This document shows positions 48,728 to 56,998 of a stretch of DNA of 64,000 bases, piece after piece; the first letter of the stretch is position 1, and each line of letters starts with the position of its first letter. The notes under the pieces are model-generated. The model was not told the origin of the DNA and did no database searches. It worked only from the letters and a program-made list of their open reading frames with translations. A program made the position numbers and the translations under genes. Origin of the DNA: Dyadobacter fermentans DSM 18053 (lineage in GTDB: Bacteria > Bacteroidota > Bacteroidia > Cytophagales > Spirosomataceae); assembly GCF_000023125.1 (NCBI RefSeq), contig NC_013037.1, positions 6,674,501-6,738,500 on the forward strand, read 5' to 3'.

Positions 48728-50686
48728 ATGCCCTTTTCTTTCATAACATATGTTTTCCCGGGTTGCCGCAAAATCATCGCTATGGCGTTTTGGCTGATCA
48801 TCGTTGCCCTGGGAAATGCATTCGCCCAACAGCCGATCACGATATCCGATTCCCGCGACCAGCATATTTTCACAGGGAATGAAATTCAATACCTGGAAGA
48901 CACAGCCGCCACTTTTACGCTCGGAGATGTGCGCTCGCCCGCTTTGAGTGCACGTTTCGAAAACAGCAAAACCAATACACCGCAGAATTACAATCTGAAA
49001 TCGACCTACTGGTTCCGCATCAACATCCGCCATAATCCCGAAAGCGGTAAGAACTGGATACTGGAATTTTTTGACCAGACGATCGACGATATCACCGCTT
49101 ACCTGCCCGACGGAAAAGGAGGTTACACCGTTCGCCGGATGGGCGATCAGTTGCCGTTCAGCGAGCGGGAGTATGCGCATAAGAATTTCGAACTGAATAT
49201 TGAAAACGATGCGGCCTTTGATGGTACCTACTATTTCCGGGTGAAATCCCACCAGACGGCCGACGCGATCATCGTGCTGCGCTCGGTGAACCGGTTCATT
49301 GCCTACGCGCTCGACGAGTACTTTATTTTCGGGATATTCTACGGCATGGTGCTGGTTTTCAGTTTCTACAACCTGATGATGTACCTCGCCGTGCGGCAGG
49401 TGCAGTACCTGTATTACGTGCTGTACAACCTCTGTGTGGGGTTGTTCGAAATGTGTATCGATGGGGTGGCCTACCAGTACCTGTGGCCCAATGCGCCCGA
49501 ATGGAACCAGTATGCCTACGGGATCGCGTTGTACGGGATCAGCATTTTTGCGCTACAATTCACCAGAACGCTGCTTTACACGCACAAAAAAGCCCCGCGA
49601 CTCGATCGCTTCATCATCCTGATCATGGTTCTCAGGACGATCTTCTTCGGCATTTGCTTTGTGGTGGACACCAATTGGTTCAGCTATAAGTTTGTGGAGC
49701 TGGTGCCGCTTGCCGTGGCATTTTATACGGGGATTTATATTTACAGGCAGGGTTATTATCCTGCGCGTTTCTTTGTTCTGGGGTACACTTTTCTTTCTAT
49801 TGGCTTCATTCACAAGCTTTTGCTCATGCTGCATGTGGAGGGGCTGAATTTCGGGGTCGTTACGTATTACAGCCTGAGCATTTGTTTCGTCATCGAAATG
49901 ATATTCCTGTCGTTTGCGATCGGGGATAAGGTGCGGATTTTGAAAAAGAAAAAGGATAAGGCGCAGAAACAGATTATCCACCAGATGCGCGTGAACGAGA
50001 AACTCAAAGATTCATTGAACATCCGGCTGGAAGCGGAAGTAGAGGAGCGGACGCGGGAGGTGCTTGAAAAATCGGCGATCATTGAGGCGCAAAACCAGGA
50101 GCTGACCGAGGTGAATGCCCTTTTGCAGCAGCAAAAAGAGGAAATTCTGCAAATGAACGTGTTGCTGGAAAAAGACAATGAAGTGCTGCACACGAATGTG
50201 GTGAAGGTGACGCAGGCACGGGTAATGTCGGCGGAGGTGGATTTCGAGGAGTTCAGCAAAATATACCCCGATAATGACAGCTGTTTCAGGTTCCTGGCGG
50301 GCATGAAGTGGGGCAATGACGCGGACGGCGATCGCTACGAATGCCGCAAATGCGGGCACGACCATTACTTTCACGGGCATTCGCCATACAGCCGCCGCTG
50401 TGCCAAATGCGATTACGACGAGTCGGTAATCGCGCATACCGTTTTTCAGAACACCCGCATTCCGATCAACAAGGCATTTTATATGGTCTTCCTGATCTTT
50501 ACCACCAAAGGTAAAATCTCTTCCCACAAGCTTTCGGAAATCCTTTCCATTCGCCAGGGCACTTGCTGGGCCTACGCGAGCCGGATCAAAAAAGTAATGC
50601 AGGACCGGCGCAGGGAGATTGCCGGTTCCAGGTCGGGGGAAGGGTGGAGTCTCCTCGTTTTGGACCATTCCCTGGAAACGGCCTGA
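48728..50686 (+). CDS. 7TM-DISM sensor fused to an IS1595-type transposase DNA-binding domain
   Basis: 652 residues. A signal peptide (MAFWLIIVALGNAFAQ) leads into a periplasmic 7TMR-DISMED2-type domain (about 40-185; ITISDSRDQHIF, STYWFRINIRHN), then seven membrane helices (about 190-400; FGIFYGMVLVFSFYNLMMYL ... SICFVIEMIFLSFAIGDKVRIL) and a coiled coil (about 400-500). From residue 505 comes a second module: FEEFSKIYPDNDSCFRFLAGMKW, a zinc ribbon with Cys539, Cys542, Cys558 and Cys561, and a helix-turn-helix (KISSHKLSEILSIRQGTCWAYASRIKKVM). That module matches the N-terminal part of IS1595/ISXO2 transposases; the DDE catalytic domain is absent. A membrane-tethered, one-component regulator is the likely role. 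Confidence 0.88.
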   Translation: MPFSFITYVFPGCRKIIAMAFWLIIVALGNAFAQQPITISDSRDQHIFTGNEIQYLEDTAATFTLGDVRSPALSARFENSKTNTPQNYNLKSTYWFRINIRHNPESGKNWILEFFDQTIDDITAYLPDGKGGYTVRRMGDQLPFSEREYAHKNFELNIENDAAFDGTYYFRVKSHQTADAIIVLRSVNRFIAYALDEYFIFGIFYGMVLVFSFYNLMMYLAVRQVQYLYYVLYNLCVGLFEMCIDGVAYQYLWPNAPEWNQYAYGIALYGISIFALQFTRTLLYTHKKAPRLDRFIILIMVLRTIFFGICFVVDTNWFSYKFVELVPLAVAFYTGIYIYRQGYYPARFFVLGYTFLSIGFIHKLLLMLHVEGLNFGVVTYYSLSICFVIEMIFLSFAIGDKVRILKKKKDKAQKQIIHQMRVNEKLKDSLNIRLEAEVEERTREVLEKSAIIEAQNQELTEVNALLQQQKEEILQMNVLLEKDNEVLHTNVVKVTQARVMSAEVDFEEFSKIYPDNDSCFRFLAGMKWGNDADGDRYECRKCGHDHYFHGHSPYSRRCAKCDYDESVIAHTVFQNTRIPINKAFYMVFLIFTTKGKISSHKLSEILSIRQGTCWAYASRIKKVMQDRRREIAGSRSGEGWSLLVLDHSLETA

Positions 50687-51010
50687 CCCGGGCACCGTAT
50701 TTGCAGAGGCGATTTTTAAATGTATTCTGCAACAAATTCCACAGTTTTTTATTTAAAAATTCACGGCGTGCAGGCGTATCAATCCTGCGCGCCGGTTCCA
50801 TGGCGGCACTGTTCGCAAGCACTGTGAATCAGGATTATCGGTGCTTCGCGGCTCCGGTGTTGAAGCGTATCAATATTGATGTAAGTGTCTATTTTACAGT
50901 CGATTATGATATTTTTTCGCTATTGATTTTCTCAAAGTATCCTTACCTTTGACCCCATGGAAATATCCAAGAAATTATCAGATTAATTACCAATAATTCA
51001 TTAACATCCT
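50687..51010. other. 324-nt region upstream of the SusC gene
   Basis: Contains the promoter at 50923-50951 near its right end. The rest is unassigned; no hairpin or small gene is supported. Confidence 0.5.
50923..50951 (+). promoter_or_regulatory. Promoter of the SusC-SusD-GH30 operon
   Basis: TTG at 50923-50925, 18-nt spacer, TACCTTTG at 50944-50951: a close match to the Bacteroidota consensus. Transcription would start about 50 nt before the SusC ATG at 51011. Confidence 0.65.
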
Positions 51011-53977
51011 ATGGGAAAGAGAATTACAATGTTCATTGCCGTGATTTTGGCGACGCTCGGCCTGGCGCATGCGCAGGAGATCGTCGTGAAAGGGGTGATC
51101 AGGGATCAGCAAAACGAGGCGCTTCCGGGCGCGAGTGTTCTGGTGAAGGGGACGCAATCAGGTACTGTAACAGATGTCGACGGAAATTATTCGATCGGGG
51201 TGCCCAACGAACAGGCAGTGCTGGTCTTTTCATTTATCGGTTACGGATCGCAGGAAGTTACTGTCGGCAATCGTACGCAGATCGACGTAACGCTCGGTGC
51301 GGACCTGAAAACGCTGAACGAAGTAGTGGTGATCGGCTACGGTACCCAGAAACGGGGCGACGTAACGACGTCCATTGCATCGGTGGATACGAAGGATATC
51401 GAAGAGCGGCCGATTTTGCAGGCCGCACAGGCACTGCAGGGTAAGGCTGCCGGTGTGCAGGTAACGCAGCCGTCGGGCAAGCCGGGTAGCGCATTGTCCA
51501 TCCGCGTGCGCGGGGCCACGTCCGTTCAGGCGGGCAATGAGCCGCTGTACGTCGTGGACGGCGTGCCGACGATGGATACGCGGGACCTGAACGTGAACGA
51601 CATTGAAAGCATTCAGGTGCTCAAAGATGCGTCATCGGCGGCTATTTACGGGGCGAGGGCTTCCAACGGGGTGGTGATCGTGACCACCAAGAGAGGTAAG
51701 GCCAACCAATCGCAGGTTAACTTCTCGGCTTACTACGGCATTTCGAACATGGCGAAGAAGATCAATGTGCTTAACCCGCAGCAGTATGCCGACCTGATGA
51801 ACGAAATGGGCCAGAACGTGACGGTAGGCAGCGAAACGACCGACTGGAACAAGGAAGTTTTCACGACGGGCAGCAACCAGAACTACCAGCTTAACTTTTC
51901 CGGTGGTACGGATAAAAACAGGTATTTCGTGTCAGGGGCCATCACCCAGGATAAAGGGATTATCCAGCCTGCCAGCTACCGTCGGTATTCATTCCGTATG
52001 AACCTTGATAACCAGATCAAAAGCTGGTTCAAGCTGACTACGAACGTGAGCTATGCCAATGCCAAAGTGCGCGATGTGAAGGATAACAACAATGCCGGTC
52101 GCAATGCCGTCGTGCTTGGTGCACTGGGCGCGCCGCCTACGATGGGCATCTACACGCAGGATTCGCTAAGGGGAACGATTTTCTCGACCAACCCGCTCAA
52201 AGCCGGGTGGGATAACCCGCTTGCTGCGATGTTCGGCCCGACACAGTCGGCACGCGACAACCGGATCTTTGGTAATGTGGCCGGAGATCTGACGCTGGCG
52301 AAAGGGCTGGTGCTGCGCTCCAACTTCGGGATCGATTTTATGAACCACGCGAACGACTATTACCTCGATCCGTTCGGCACCACCGAAGGATGGGGCGCCA
52401 ATGGCAGCACCCATGGCCTGGGCAATGCAACCCGCAGCAACTCATTCACCTACCTTTGGGAAAATACGGCCAACTACGAGAAGAAGTGGGACAAGCACGA
52501 GTTCTCGGCCCTGGCGGGTACGACGGTCCAGAAAAACACCTGGAACAATTCGTACATGGCAGGCCGCGATTTCCCGGCGGACGGTGTCGTGAAAACGATG
52601 AATGCGGCGAACGAGATTACCGAAGCCTACACCGAGCAGTCGGAATGGTTCCTGAATTCTTATCTGGGACGGTTGATGTATAATTTCGATAGTAAATACC
52701 TGATTACGGCCAATTTCCGGGCGGACGGGTCGTCGAAATTGGCCAGAGGCAACCAATGGGGCTTCTTTCCGTCGGTATCGGCCGGATGGCGTATTTCCGC
52801 CGAGCCGTTCATGGAGGATGTCAAGTTCATCAATGACCTGAAATTACGCGGAGGATGGGGCCAGAATGGTAACCAGGAGGGCCTGGCGAACTACGCGTCG
52901 TTCGGGCTGAACAGTTACACGCGCCGCACGCCTACCTCCCCGCCATCGGGCCCGGCCGTCACGCCGCCTACCTACGCGCCCAATCCTGATCTCCGTTGGG
53001 AAACGACTACGCAAACCAATATCGGTGTGGACCTGAGCATGTTGCAGGGACGACTGACACTTACCGCGGACGCTTATCTCAAAAAGACGAACGACCTGTT
53101 GCTGAACGTCCCGCTCCCCAATACGAGCGGCTACACCTACATGCCCAGGAATTCGGGTAAACTGGAAAACAAGGGTCTGGAATTTGTGCTGTCGAGCGTG
53201 AACTTCGATAAGGCTGATTTTCAATGGACTACGGATTTTAACATTGCATTCAACCGCAACAAAATCACCGAATTACAGCTGAGCAAAATTTACCGGTATG
53301 CCGATGTGGAAGGCCGGAGCGACCAGATCATCATTTTGCAGGAAGGTGCTTCGCTCGGGACTTTCTACGGATACATTGCCGACGGCGTGAACCCGGAAAC
53401 CGGGGATATGATCTACCGCGATGTGAATGGCGACGGTTCTTTTTCACCATCCGACCGCACGATCCTGGGTTCGGCCCAGCCGAAATTCACCTACGGAATG
53501 AACAACAACCTGACTTACAAGAATTTCAGTTTGTCGTTCCTCTTCCAGGGTTCGCATGGAAACAAGGCATTCAATGCATCGAGGCTTGAAACGGAAGGGA
53601 TGTATGACAGCAAGAACCAGTCGACCGAAGTGCTGAGACGCTGGCAGAAGCCGGGTGACATTACCGACATTCCGAGGGCAACCGACGGCAATGTCAACAA
53701 CTCGCTCATTTCGTCACGCTTTGTTGAAAATGCATCGTTCCTCCGGATGAAAAGCGCCACCATTTCCTACGCACTCAGCAAGGAACTGGCCGGCAAGATT
53801 AAGCTGAGCCGGGCATCCGTTTACCTGACGGCCCAAAACCTGTTCACCATCACGAAATACAAAGGCTTTGATCCCGAGGTGAATGCATTCACTTCAAGCG
53901 GCGCCACGTTAGGAATCGACTACGGCACTTACCCCGTTTCCCGTGCATTTGTAGCAGGTATCAATGTTTCGTTTTAA
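51011..53977 (+). CDS. SusC/RagA-family TonB-dependent transporter
   Basis: 988-residue outer-membrane protein. Signal peptide (MFIAVILATLGLAHAQ), then a carboxypeptidase-regulatory-like beta-sandwich (VVKGVIRDQQNEALPGASVLVKGT, residues about 25-100), the plug (LNEVVVIGYGTQKRGDVTTSIASVD; YVVDGVPTMDTRDLNVNDIESIQVLKDASSAAIYGARASNGVVIVTT) and a 22-strand barrel ending with aromatic FVAGINVSF. It imports oligosaccharides or glycans with TonB energy and its SusD partner. No anti-sigma or sigma factor sits beside it, so regulation must be by another route. Confidence 0.97.
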   Translation: MGKRITMFIAVILATLGLAHAQEIVVKGVIRDQQNEALPGASVLVKGTQSGTVTDVDGNYSIGVPNEQAVLVFSFIGYGSQEVTVGNRTQIDVTLGADLKTLNEVVVIGYGTQKRGDVTTSIASVDTKDIEERPILQAAQALQGKAAGVQVTQPSGKPGSALSIRVRGATSVQAGNEPLYVVDGVPTMDTRDLNVNDIESIQVLKDASSAAIYGARASNGVVIVTTKRGKANQSQVNFSAYYGISNMAKKINVLNPQQYADLMNEMGQNVTVGSETTDWNKEVFTTGSNQNYQLNFSGGTDKNRYFVSGAITQDKGIIQPASYRRYSFRMNLDNQIKSWFKLTTNVSYANAKVRDVKDNNNAGRNAVVLGALGAPPTMGIYTQDSLRGTIFSTNPLKAGWDNPLAAMFGPTQSARDNRIFGNVAGDLTLAKGLVLRSNFGIDFMNHANDYYLDPFGTTEGWGANGSTHGLGNATRSNSFTYLWENTANYEKKWDKHEFSALAGTTVQKNTWNNSYMAGRDFPADGVVKTMNAANEITEAYTEQSEWFLNSYLGRLMYNFDSKYLITANFRADGSSKLARGNQWGFFPSVSAGWRISAEPFMEDVKFINDLKLRGGWGQNGNQEGLANYASFGLNSYTRRTPTSPPSGPAVTPPTYAPNPDLRWETTTQTNIGVDLSMLQGRLTLTADAYLKKTNDLLLNVPLPNTSGYTYMPRNSGKLENKGLEFVLSSVNFDKADFQWTTDFNIAFNRNKITELQLSKIYRYADVEGRSDQIIILQEGASLGTFYGYIADGVNPETGDMIYRDVNGDGSFSPSDRTILGSAQPKFTYGMNNNLTYKNFSLSFLFQGSHGNKAFNASRLETEGMYDSKNQSTEVLRRWQKPGDITDIPRATDGNVNNSLISSRFVENASFLRMKSATISYALSKELAGKIKLSRASVYLTAQNLFTITKYKGFDPEVNAFTSSGATLGIDYGTYPVSRAFVAGINVSF

Positions 53978-53989
53978 CCCAGGAATTTC

Positions 53990-55456
53990 ATGAAAAAGAT
54001 TAAATATATAGCACTTGCTCTGGGGTCGGCCATGCTGCTGCCGGCGTGCCAGGATCAGTTGGATTTGCAGCCTGTATCTCAAACAGTGGTAGGGGAAAGC
54101 GGAAGCGGCACAGCCGGGTCGTCCATCAAAGATGCGGCCAGCGCCGAGGCTGCGCTCGCTGGTGCCTACGCCATTTTCAAAAACGGCTCCGCGGAATATT
54201 ATGTCATGGACTATTTCATCCTCGGTGACGGGCAGTCCGACAACTCCTACGCCGGTGCCGACAATGCGGCCTGGTTTGAAGTAGACGAATTCAGGGTGCT
54301 TTCCACGAATGCGGTTGCGGCAAGGGACTGGCGCTATTTGTATAACCACGTGGCGAGTGCCAACTCGATCATTGCCAATGTGCCGAAGGTGACGGACGCA
54401 TCGCTCTCGGCTACCCGCAAGGCGCAGATCGTCGGTGAAGCTAAGTTCATTCGTGCGCGGGCCTATTTCGACCTTGTGCGGATTTACGGGGACGTGCCGC
54501 TGGTGGTGGACGAGCTGCCTACCATTACATCTTCCAATGTGGAAGAGATCTATGGCCAGCTCTACCCGGCCAGAAGCGCGGCCGAGGAGGTTTATGCGCA
54601 GATTGTAAAAGACCTGGACGAGGCAGCCCCTGCTGTGCCCAAAACAGGTCCGAACAAAATGACCGTCACGCCCGGCGCCGTGCATACCCTGCTGGCGAAG
54701 GTATACGCAACCCGCAAGGATTGGGCAAAAGTGAAGGAGAATGCCGACAAGGTGATTGCCCTGGGCTACACGCTCATGCCGAATTTCGAAGATCTGTGGG
54801 ACGGAAAGCATGAAAACAGTGCAGAAGCCATTTTTGAACTAAACTTTGAAGAATGGGCCACTGGCGGAAACTGGGGATCATCCATGTTCTATGGCACCGA
54901 CTGGAAGAAGTTTAACACCCCTTCCAACGACCTTGTGAAGGCCTATGACGATGAAAAGGACGTGGTGCGCAAGGCTTCCACGATTTACACAGCCAATGTG
55001 ACGGGCAAATGGTCCGACCGTTACTGGCCATTGAACAACTTCCCGTTTGCCTATAAAATGCGCAATACGGACGCTTCGCAGAACATCATCATGTACCGCC
55101 TGGCCGACGTGCTGCTGCTCAAAGCGGAAGCATTGAACGAAACGGGCGACCTGGCGGGTGCCCGCACGCTGGTAAACCAAGTGCGAACGCGCGCCAAGCT
55201 GCCAGCCACACCGGCGGCCGATCAGGCGGCTATGCGCCTGGCCATCGAAAAAGAGCGCCGTTTGGAGTTCGCATTCGAAGGGCAGCGGTGGCACGACCTC
55301 GTGCGCACGGGAAGGGTAGTACCGGTAATGGAAGCCGTGAAGGACGGCGCCGGCAACAGCCTGAATTACAAACTATCCGATACGAAGCTGCTATGGCCGG
55401 TTCCGCAAGGTGAAATCGATAAAAATGCGAATCTGAACCAAAATAACGGTTATTAA
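53990..55456 (+). CDS. SusD/RagB-family nutrient-binding outer-membrane lipoprotein
   Basis: 488 residues with lipobox MLLPACQD (Cys20). SusD-type helical tetratricopeptide scaffold: KAQIVGEAKFIRARAYFDLVRIYGDVPLV, LADVLLLKAEALNETGDLAGA and IEKERRLEFAFEGQRWHDLVRTG are hallmarks. It caps the SusC transporter and captures the glycan at the cell surface. It starts 12 nt after the SusC stop, so the two are co-transcribed. The C-terminus, WPVPQGEIDKNANLNQNNGY, is the family's usual ending. Confidence 0.96.
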   Translation: MKKIKYIALALGSAMLLPACQDQLDLQPVSQTVVGESGSGTAGSSIKDAASAEAALAGAYAIFKNGSAEYYVMDYFILGDGQSDNSYAGADNAAWFEVDEFRVLSTNAVAARDWRYLYNHVASANSIIANVPKVTDASLSATRKAQIVGEAKFIRARAYFDLVRIYGDVPLVVDELPTITSSNVEEIYGQLYPARSAAEEVYAQIVKDLDEAAPAVPKTGPNKMTVTPGAVHTLLAKVYATRKDWAKVKENADKVIALGYTLMPNFEDLWDGKHENSAEAIFELNFEEWATGGNWGSSMFYGTDWKKFNTPSNDLVKAYDDEKDVVRKASTIYTANVTGKWSDRYWPLNNFPFAYKMRNTDASQNIIMYRLADVLLLKAEALNETGDLAGARTLVNQVRTRAKLPATPAADQAAMRLAIEKERRLEFAFEGQRWHDLVRTGRVVPVMEAVKDGAGNSLNYKLSDTKLLWPVPQGEIDKNANLNQNNGY

Positions 55457-55537
55457 TCCACGATGTCAGGTCATGCGGGAATGGTCCGGGTTTTCCGGCA
55501 GCCGTTCACTGGCATGGCCTGGCTTTTTTTATATATC

Positions 55538-56998
55538 ATGAAAAGAAATGTGATTGCAACGTTCACCTGGCTGGGTTTTGCGTTGATGAGCTGCTCAGCG
55601 GAAACACCGGAAGAAAGCAATAATCCCGCTCCTGCGGACACCACAGCGGCTAACAAAGTGGCCGTGTGGGTAACGAACGGCACGCAGGGCAAGCTGCTGA
55701 AAAGCGAGCAGCCGCTCTCCATCGTGAAAGCGGGGACGGTTTCGCCCGCCGCCAACCTGATTAATATTGATTTTTCCACCAAATTGCAAGAAATGGAAGG
55801 CTTCGGTGCAGCGCTCACGGGCTCATCGGCCTATCTCATCCAGCAAAAGCTCAATGCCTCGCAGCGCGAAAACCTGCTGAAAGACCTTTTTGATCCTAAC
55901 ACCGGCATCGGGATGAGCTATTTGCGCGTTACGATGGGCGCGTCGGATTTTTCCCTGGAAGATTTTACGTACAACGACCTGCCCGCAGGACAAACGGACG
56001 CGGCTTTAAGCAAATTCTCCATCGCAAAAGATCAGGCGGACCTCATTCCCGTCCTCAAATCCGTGCTGGCCTTGCAGCCTTCGATCCGCATTATGGCAAC
56101 GCCGTGGTCGGCGCCGGCGTGGATGAAAACCAGCGGAAAACTGGCCGGCGGCAGCCTCAAACCGGAATGGTATGGTGCTTATGCCCAGTATTTTAAAAAA
56201 TACCTCGACGCTTACCAGAAAGAAGGCATAACGATCGACGCCATTTCGGTGCAGAACGAACCGTTGCACGAGGCGGCATATCCTTCCATGGGCATGGATT
56301 CGGCGGCGCAGGGGAATTTCATTAAGAACCACCTGGGCCCGTTGTTCGAGGCCAATGCGATCCGGACGAAGATCCTGCTTTACGATCATAACTGGGACAG
56401 GCCGGGGTATCCCATCTCGATCCTCAACGACCCGCAGGCGAGCCGGTACGTGGCCGGATCGGCATTTCATGCTTATGGCGGCAATGTGTCGGCGATGAGT
56501 GAAGTGCATGACCGCTTTCCCGACAAGGGCCTGTATTTTACCGAAATATCAGGCGGCCGCTGGGCGACCAATTTTTCCGATAATCTGAAATGGAACATGT
56601 CGAATATATTCATCGGCACGGCCAACAACTGGTCGAAAAACGCGCTTTTGTGGAACATTGCGCTGGATGAGAATGATGGCCCCAAAAACAAGGGCTGCGA
56701 CAATTGCCGCGGCGTGGTAACCATCGCTTCCAATGGCAGTATTACCAAAAATGTGGAGTACTACACGATCGCGCACATGTCGAAATTCGTGCGTCCGGGC
56801 GCATTCCGCGTGCAAACGGACCGGCTGAGCGCATCGAGCCAATTGGAACACGTCGCATTCCTGAACCCCGACGGCTCAAAAGTGCTGGTTATACTGAACC
56901 AGGGCGCCGATAACCGGAAGTTTACGGTGGCCGTTGGTAAAAATCAGTACAGCTACACCATTGATCCAAATGCGGTGGCAACGCTGGTTTGGAAATAA
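55538..56998 (+). CDS. Glycoside hydrolase family 30 lipoprotein
   Basis: 486 residues. Lipobox LMSCS (about Cys18) marks a lipoprotein. A (beta/alpha)8 domain has acid/base Glu241 in AISVQNEPLHE and nucleophile Glu336 in YFTEISGGRW; GFGAALTGSSAYLI is the GH30 entry motif, and a C-terminal beta-sandwich follows (AFLNPDGSKVLVILNQGADNRKFTVAVG). GH30 enzymes include glucosylceramidases and beta-1,6-glucanases; the latter are common in SusCD loci of Bacteroidota, so a beta-1,6-glucan is the favoured target. The start is at the lipoprotein signal, 81 nt after the SusD stop. It closes the operon. Confidence 0.94.
   Translation: MKRNVIATFTWLGFALMSCSAETPEESNNPAPADTTAANKVAVWVTNGTQGKLLKSEQPLSIVKAGTVSPAANLINIDFSTKLQEMEGFGAALTGSSAYLIQQKLNASQRENLLKDLFDPNTGIGMSYLRVTMGASDFSLEDFTYNDLPAGQTDAALSKFSIAKDQADLIPVLKSVLALQPSIRIMATPWSAPAWMKTSGKLAGGSLKPEWYGAYAQYFKKYLDAYQKEGITIDAISVQNEPLHEAAYPSMGMDSAAQGNFIKNHLGPLFEANAIRTKILLYDHNWDRPGYPISILNDPQASRYVAGSAFHAYGGNVSAMSEVHDRFPDKGLYFTEISGGRWATNFSDNLKWNMSNIFIGTANNWSKNALLWNIALDENDGPKNKGCDNCRGVVTIASNGSITKNVEYYTIAHMSKFVRPGAFRVQTDRLSASSQLEHVAFLNPDGSKVLVILNQGADNRKFTVAVGKNQYSYTIDPNAVATLVWK

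What the first reader, a model, noticed from the sequence alone, without database searches (positions are those of the whole stretch)
48728..50686. Membrane sensor fused to a transposase-derived DNA-binding module
A signal-peptide, 7TM-DISM sensor and coiled coil are followed by a zinc ribbon (Cys539/542/558/561) and a helix-turn-helix that read like the N-terminal half of IS1595/ISXO2 transposases, including the typical lead-in (YPDNDSCFRFLAGMKW) and the step from ribbon to NTRIPINKAFYMVFLIFTTKGKIS. The transposase catalytic domain is absent, so this looks like a domesticated DNA-binding part. That gives a one-component regulator that binds DNA while in the membrane, a design rarely described for this domain pair. 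Possible targets are the glycan locus on its left and the SusCD locus on its right.
Basis: partly seen in the sequence, partly recalled or inferred. Interest (0 to 1): 0.85.

Follow-up and report, generated by a model that had tools for sequence, protein, structure and literature searches.

The report
Membrane glycan regulator with transposase-derived DNA-binder
A bacterial membrane sensor protein carries the DNA-gripping end of an old jumping-gene enzyme and very probably uses it to switch on the neighbouring genes for eating a beta-glucan, a kind of regulator of which no description was found.

Summary
The 652-aa protein at 48728-50686 is a DISMED2 + 7TM-DISM receptor, a helical linker, and a C-terminal zinc ribbon and HTH homologous to the N-terminal part of IS1595 transposases, without the DDE domain. 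It is not a one-off: full-length relatives occur in several Bacteroidota genera. In a 117-row tree, 62 DISM, 3 propeller, 8 coiled-coil and 17 of 21 standalone rows form one clade next to IS1595-like proteins (100/96). Most of the 80 closest loci (55-87% identity) have a SusC-SusD and GH30 locus like the Bacteroides 1,6-beta-glucan locus, which there has a SusR-type regulator (PMC5481569). The regulator-SusC gap carries direct repeats of GGTATTNAAGCGTATCA: 56 of 61 gaps have the site, 48 have two 90-93 bp apart, against 1 of 403 other gaps, itself a mis-called regulator-SusC gap. Best reading: a membrane-bound one-component activator with a domesticated transposase DNA-binding domain. It works like SusR but shows no homology to a SusR-like protein tested. 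DNA binding is inferred; some relatives with other neighbours lack the site.

The parts
48728..50686 (+). membrane regulator gene (652 aa): DISMED2, 7TM-DISM, helical linker, zinc ribbon, HTH
48875..49279 (+). periplasmic sensor domain 7TMR-DISMED2 (residues 50-184)
   Evidence: Pfam PF07696, E 3.9e-33
49316..49930 (+). 7TMR-DISM seven-helix membrane domain (residues 197-401)
   Evidence: Pfam PF07695, E 1.6e-46; 5 matches in the own genome, two of them overlapping at one place
49931..50239 (+). helical linker, probable coiled coil (residues 402-504; no coiled-coil predictor was run)
   Evidence: two long predicted helices, 377-452 and 463-499, with low confidence from about residue 440 on; sequence
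50267..50416 (+). zinc ribbon (residues 514-563; Cys539/542/558/561)
   Evidence: Pfam PF12760, E 1.5e-4, below cut-off; Cys invariant in 17 of 17 rows
50450..50617 (+). helix-turn-helix (residues 575-630) like the segment between ribbon and DDE domain of IS1595 transposases
50765..50781 (+). putative operator copy 1, GGCGTGCAGGCGTATCA
   Evidence: phylogenetic footprint
50822..50832 (+). second conserved element between the copies, CTGTGAATCAG, role unknown
   Evidence: footprint
50856..50872 (+). putative operator copy 2, GGTGTTGAAGCGTATCA; the only exact GGTNNNNAANCGTATCA in the genome
50923..50951 (+). likely SusC promoter, TTG ... TACCTTTG (Bacteroidetes consensus recalled, from no call)
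   Evidence: sequence; box 88 bp from the start of copy 2; in relatives 18 matches at 99 bp, 13 at 88 bp and 7 elsewhere
51011..53977 (+). SusC-type TonB-dependent transporter, likely target
   Evidence: TIGR04056, E 2e-281; no STN domain listed
53990..55456 (+). SusD-type lipoprotein, likely target
   Evidence: Pfam SusD_RagB, E 3e-38
55463..56998 (+). GH30 enzyme, likely endo-1,6-beta-glucanase, likely target
   Evidence: PF02055, E 5.5e-47; NF053856 (BT3312 model) E 2.4e-131, 438.7 bits, below cut-off 700

Best explanation
The protein is a membrane-bound one-component transcription activator of the beta-1,6-glucan-type PUL encoded just downstream. Its periplasmic DISMED2 domain senses a ligand, probably a beta-glucan oligosaccharide (inferred). 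The 7TM domain and helical linker pass the signal (inferred). The cytoplasmic zinc ribbon and HTH, taken from an IS1595-type transposase that lost its DDE domain (supported by homology and tree), bind two direct-repeat sites of consensus GGTATTNAAGCGTATCA upstream of the SusC promoter (sites shown; binding by this protein inferred from linkage) and activate susC-susD-GH30 while the protein stays in the membrane (inferred).
For: Homology to the ribbon and HTH of IS1595-like proteins that carry PF12762. One clade of 90 rows without a DDE-sized tail (100/96). Purifying selection on the HTH. Of 80 loci, with the gene called in 79, SusC lies within 6 genes downstream on the same strand in 60, and a GH30, GH3, GH5 or GH16 gene lies near in 77. 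Site in 56 of 61 regulator-SusC gaps, 48 of them with two copies spaced 90-93 bp, none reversed, against 1 of 403 other gaps (the mis-called L007 regulator-SusC gap); first-order resampling expects 0.005 (the pattern was drawn from these same gaps). The 5 misses hold GTATCA or GTATCG near-matches. In other loci AAGCGTATCA precedes GH30 (8), GH3 (3) or GH5 (2) in the same orientation. In 12 regulator-bearing genomes of 48 of the genus the exact pair lies right behind the gene in 11; 12 further matches lie elsewhere, 11 of them in genomes without the gene, against 5 for the reversed control pattern. The sites lie upstream of a promoter-like box, at two offsets 11 bp apart. A diverged group shares AAGYGTAT in 15 of 17 downstream gaps.
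Against: No binding or expression data. Ribbon and HTH matches of the single sequence are below curated cut-offs. The full-length model is of middling confidence (pLDDT 70.4, pTM 0.48) and fold matches of the C-terminal model are weak. Of the 80 loci, 16 show no non-coding site by either pattern (in L012 it lies under a called small ORF), among them 11 of the 19 loci that lack a regulator-SusC gap. Of five further relatives of about 50-59% identity, four have no such site within 900 bp downstream and one (L159/L199, with SusC, SusD and GH30 matches) has two imperfect copies 78 bp apart. A diverged group (f2) shows no AAGYGTAT in 7 of 7 gaps. Only 6 of 20 hand-picked further loci have SusC next downstream. 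With up to two mismatches the genome has 533 site-like matches against 377 for the reversed control, so a wider regulon cannot be read from it.
Confidence: 0.78

Rival explanations
1. The conserved sites are bound by another regulator, for example the response regulator encoded next to it in part of the loci, and this protein signals by protein contact.
For: A response regulator and kinase pair (my labels from length and sequence, not Pfam-scanned) lies upstream in 18 loci, all with the site; half-sites GTATY 10 bp apart would suit an OmpR-type dimer (recalled).
Against: 37 loci plus the window have the site without that pair; the site also stands before GH30 and GH5 genes by the regulator.
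Confidence: 0.1
2. It binds the same sites but represses, or acts after proteolytic release of the cytoplasmic part.
For: Not excluded by any search; the sites alone do not show the sign of regulation.
Against: Copy 2 starts mostly 88 or 99 bp before the promoter-like box, not overlapping it; no protease site was looked for.
Confidence: 0.15
3. The C-terminal part binds RNA or protein, or is a decaying transposase remnant.
For: Zinc ribbons can bind RNA or protein (general knowledge); single-sequence scores are below cut-offs.
Against: Conservation; homology to transposase DNA-binding parts; linked DNA sites.
Confidence: 0.05

Closest known systems
SusR-like regulators (SusR BT3705; SusR3 BT3309 of the Bacteroides 1,6-beta-glucan PUL)
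   Same: Membrane protein with periplasmic sensor and cytoplasmic DNA-binding part, serving a SusCD locus; [quoted passage not shown] BT3309 belongs to a locus with SusCD, GH30_3 and GH3 (PMC5481569, passages).
   Different: The SusR-like protein tested has DUF6377, no ribbon match, and no significant similarity to this protein or its profile. The spacing here is 90-93 bp.
IS1595-family transposases (ISXO2-like DDE)
   Same: Zinc ribbon followed by HTH.
   Different: No DDE domain; sensor, membrane and linker parts added; the only match of the module profile in the own genome.
7TMR-DISM histidine kinases
   Same: Same DISMED2 and 7TM parts; two in this genome.
   Different: Output is ribbon-HTH instead of a kinase.
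Hybrid two-component systems (HTCS) of PULs
   Same: Sensor-to-PUL control; three proteins from two genomes of the order carry Reg_prop and Y_Y_Y sensors before this module.
   Different: No kinase, receiver or AraC domain listed.

Membership tests
7TMR-DISM receptors | 7TMR-DISM_7TM membrane domain | tested here: met
   159.3 bits against cut-off 29
7TMR-DISM receptors | periplasmic DISMED1 or DISMED2 domain | tested here: met
   DISMED2, 114.7 bits against cut-off 22
IS1595 transposase | zinc ribbon PF12760 | tested here: inconclusive
   22.1 bits against cut-off 25.4 in this protein; listed among precomputed domains of several relatives
IS1595 transposase | DDE domain PF12762 | tested here: not met
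   no match; protein ends after the HTH and a short tail; present in 8 of 8 compared proteins
SusR-like regulators | homology to SusR (DUF6377 and its HTH) | tested here: not met
   no DUF6377 in this protein; no significant BLASTP or hhalign match to one SusR-like protein, recognised by its place beside GH97, SusC-type and SusD genes
SusR-like regulators | direct-repeat operator with long spacer at a PUL | tested here: met
   90-93 bp pairs in 48 of 61 gaps; likeness of design, not of descent
HTCS | HisKA, HATPase, receiver and AraC domains | tested here: not met
   none listed up to E 1
ECF sigma/anti-sigma PUL control | SusC with STN domain | tested here: not met
   no STN among Pfam matches of the SusC
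ECF sigma/anti-sigma PUL control | cognate sigma/anti-sigma pair | not tested
   the genome was not searched for such a pair
Transcription activator | binds operator and raises transcription | not testable with these tools
   needs bench work

The most novel reading that the evidence does not exclude
One ancient domestication of an IS1595-type transposase gave Bacteroidota a large, undescribed superfamily of transcription factors whose ribbon-HTH is joined to 7TM-DISM receptors, to HTCS-type beta-propeller sensors, to coiled coils, or stands alone. Here it takes the place of SusR as the membrane-bound regulator of the beta-1,6-glucan locus, with its own long-spaced direct-repeat operator.
Probability: 0.7. 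Interest if true: 0.85.

Novelty: new variant of a known kind. Interest (0 to 1): 0.78.

Why it matters
For Bacteroides, PUL control has been described by SusR-like proteins, HTCSs and ECF sigma/anti-sigma pairs (PMC3878776, passages). A further class with a transposase-derived DNA-binding domain would help to explain regulation of many loci in other Bacteroidota: the module profile hits 150 of 390 sampled genomes of the order at E 1e-12 (most listed frames are of DISM size, but hits were not all checked for a sensor and some may be transposases). It would also be a clear bacterial case of a transposase domesticated into a membrane-bound regulator. The predicted operator makes it directly testable.

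Full report
What is there. The reading frame 48728-50686 encodes 652 aa. Pfam finds 7TMR-DISMED2 and 7TMR-DISM_7TM far above cut-off, and Zn_ribbon_IS1595 at 514-563 slightly below cut-off. NCBIfam's IS1595 transposase model matches 575-630 with its first 57 of 215 positions, also below cut-off. No DDE domain follows. Four cysteines (539, 542, 558, 561) are invariant in the 17 relatives aligned (17 of 120 listed).

Not a one-off. A search of 5.8 billion proteins gave 1522 matches at E 0.001 among the 7987 candidates scored; the best 120 are listed, near full length, with the same two DISM domains, 58-89% identical apart from the protein itself, and where a source names an organism it is Dyadobacter, Chitinophaga, Pedobacter or Mucilaginibacter. 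A scan of 84,980 species genomes found 209 confirmed stretches; the best 80 were kept. Of these 80, 77 contain the IYPD motif that opens the ribbon module, 2 have a variant of it, and in one (L007) the gene was not called by my ORF caller, though its tblastn match runs to residue 651. The window's genome shares its genus with Dyadobacter luticola: G750, same genus, has the gene at the same contig position as L009 (inference).

Origin of the DNA-binding part. A profile of nine C-terminal modules (A2) hit 57 of 395 phylum genomes, among them about 300-aa IS1595-like proteins at up to E 4.7e-37. Eight such proteins were scanned and all eight carry PF12762, the IS1595 DDE domain. In the own genome the profile hit only this gene. 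In 390 genomes of the order it hit 150 at E 1e-12, up to ten in one genome, ten being also the number of candidates scored per genome. I pooled 410 module-bearing sequences and put 117 of them in a tree; left out were rows with under 100 profile positions, duplicates, and part of the rest, mostly close relatives and fragments. The 62 DISM, 8 coiled-coil, 3 propeller and 17 of 21 standalone rows fall in one clade (100/96); 4 standalone rows lie outside. Its sister is a group of 8 IS1595-like proteins from one genome that, by eye in the alignment, lack the usual catalytic motifs (93/80); next come a transposase with PF12760 and PF12762 (L098 = L150) and two long-branched rows. The columns are few (137) and long branches are present, so the sister order is unsure. 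The labels rest on lead and tail lengths; only some rows were checked with Pfam.

Sensor exchange. Three proteins of about 1000 aa, from two genomes, carry Reg_prop and Y_Y_Y, the sensors of HTCSs, before this module; Pfam's ribbon matches in two of the three, while the A2 profile covers all three. One of them (L188) is followed by SusC- and SusD-like genes. A form of 244 aa (P0184) and one of 143 aa (P0206) match the ribbon model with no other Pfam domain.

Neighbourhood. I clustered the neighbours of the 80 loci. With the regulator called in 79, SusC lies within six genes downstream on the same strand in 60, SusD in 59, GH30 in 66, and a GH30, GH3, GH5 or GH16 gene is near in 77 (arrangement; labels from cluster representatives scanned). 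The first downstream plus-strand ORF over 150 aa is SusC in 60, GH30 in 5 and something else in 14. In the window the order is regulator, SusC, SusD, GH30; the GH30 protein matches NCBIfam's endo-1,6-beta-glucanase BT3312 model at E 2.4e-131, below its cut-off. In B. thetaiotaomicron the 1,6-beta-glucan PUL has a SusR-type regulator BT3309, SusCD, GH30_3 and GH3, and its genes other than the regulator's are induced by pustulan (PMC5481569, passages). So a similar locus appears to have a different regulator type here.

Operator. Aligning the 61 regulator-SusC gaps (60 relatives and the window) showed a repeated element. Its consensus, from 99 copies chosen by the core CGTATCA, is GGTATTNAAGCGTATCA, itself two GTATY half-sites 10 bp apart. 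A relaxed form occurs in 56 of 61 gaps, in two copies in 48, always in the same orientation, 90 to 93 bp apart (4, 14, 23 and 7 cases). It occurs in 1 of 403 other gaps of the same loci, and that one is the L007 regulator-SusC gap whose regulator was not called. Seven hits lie in 1.54 Mb of called coding DNA, and first-order resampling of the gaps expects 0.005 hits. The pattern was drawn from these same gaps, so the comparison with other gaps, not the resampling alone, carries the weight. The five gaps without it contain near-matches. Counting AAGCGTATCA over all 80 loci, non-coding same-strand hits precede SusC 69 times, GH30 8, GH3 3 and GH5 2; four hits stand opposite to the next gene and five are in coding DNA. 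Of the 19 loci without a regulator-SusC gap (L007 not counted), 8 have AAGCGTATCA and 11 have no site. In the genus, 12 of 48 genomes have the gene and 11 of the 12 have the exact pair just behind it; 12 further matches lie elsewhere, 11 of them in genomes without the gene, against 5 for the reversed control. In the own genome the exact site GGTNNNNAANCGTATCA occurs once; with two mismatches there are 533 matches against 377 for the control. Relative to copy 2 a promoter-like TANNTTTR box lies at 99 bp in 18 and at 88 bp in 13 matches, with 7 at other offsets, among 48 gaps. A diverged group in the same order has TGTGnnGTAAGYGTATA-like elements with AAGYGTAT in 15 of 17 gaps (18 rows, L164 and L193 being one locus).

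Against generality. None of 7 gaps of another diverged group shows AAGYGTAT. Of five further relatives of about 50-59% identity (L087, L088, L157/L198, L158/L197, L159/L199), four have no such site within 900 bp downstream; the fifth, which has SusC, SusD and GH30 matches behind it, has two imperfect copies 78 bp apart. Among the ten other DISM-size relatives, SusC-like genes come next downstream in 6 and GH3-like ones in 2, by BLAST labels in short loci. Only 6 of 20 hand-picked further loci have SusC next downstream, two of these after a small called ORF; others lie by PfkB kinase and permease genes (L181) or a PEP carboxylase gene (L185).

Comparison with SusR. SusR-like regulators are membrane proteins with predicted direct-repeat operators 67 or 77 bp apart, and their DNA-binding domain was said to have no significant similarity to those of other known regulators (PMC3878776, section 7 read). 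This made homology a real possibility. A SusR-like protein, recognised by its place beside GH97, SusC-type and SusD genes, has DUF6377, no ribbon match, and no significant similarity to this protein or its profile. One such protein was tested. The two kinds work alike in outline and appear to be of different descent.

Conclusion. I extend it with a predicted operator, a likely substrate class, a single-clade origin and sensor exchange. DNA binding, activation, ligand and action from within the membrane are inferred and need the bench.

Noticed in passing
L136-L143 (G162): Ten IS1595-like matches in one genome; the 8 fetched lack, by eye, the usual VDE and TD motifs of the DDE domain, and two (L139, L141) have 25-bp inverted ends.
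   Followed up: partly
L188, L189, L190: HTCS-type sensors (Reg_prop, Y_Y_Y) joined to the ribbon-HTH with no kinase or receiver listed; L188 precedes SusC- and SusD-like genes.
   Followed up: partly
P0189-P0240; L148:1194-1607: Many standalone ribbon-HTH proteins, mostly 128-157 aa, fill the lower part of the 120 rows listed; 17 placed in the tree group with the regulators. Function unknown.
   Followed up: partly
P0178-P0185: Ribbon-HTH proteins of about 245 aa with a helical lead and no sensor domain found in the one scanned.
   Followed up: no
window 50822-50832 and after copy 2: A second conserved element ending in ATCAG lies between the operator copies, with a related one after copy 2 in several groups; role unknown.
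   Followed up: partly
G786:C2:3507010-3508952; L192: Broken copies of the regulator gene (stops inside, or split over two frames); in G786 the operator pair is still there.
   Followed up: no
genome 6672550-6673164 (L003), just left of the window; 2950112-2950723 (L001): Two other 7TM-DISM proteins of this genome are histidine kinases.
   Followed up: yes
database names: Relatives bear names such as ParA, ribosomal protein L37E or LadS kinase, for which the protein's Pfam domains give no reason.
   Followed up: partly
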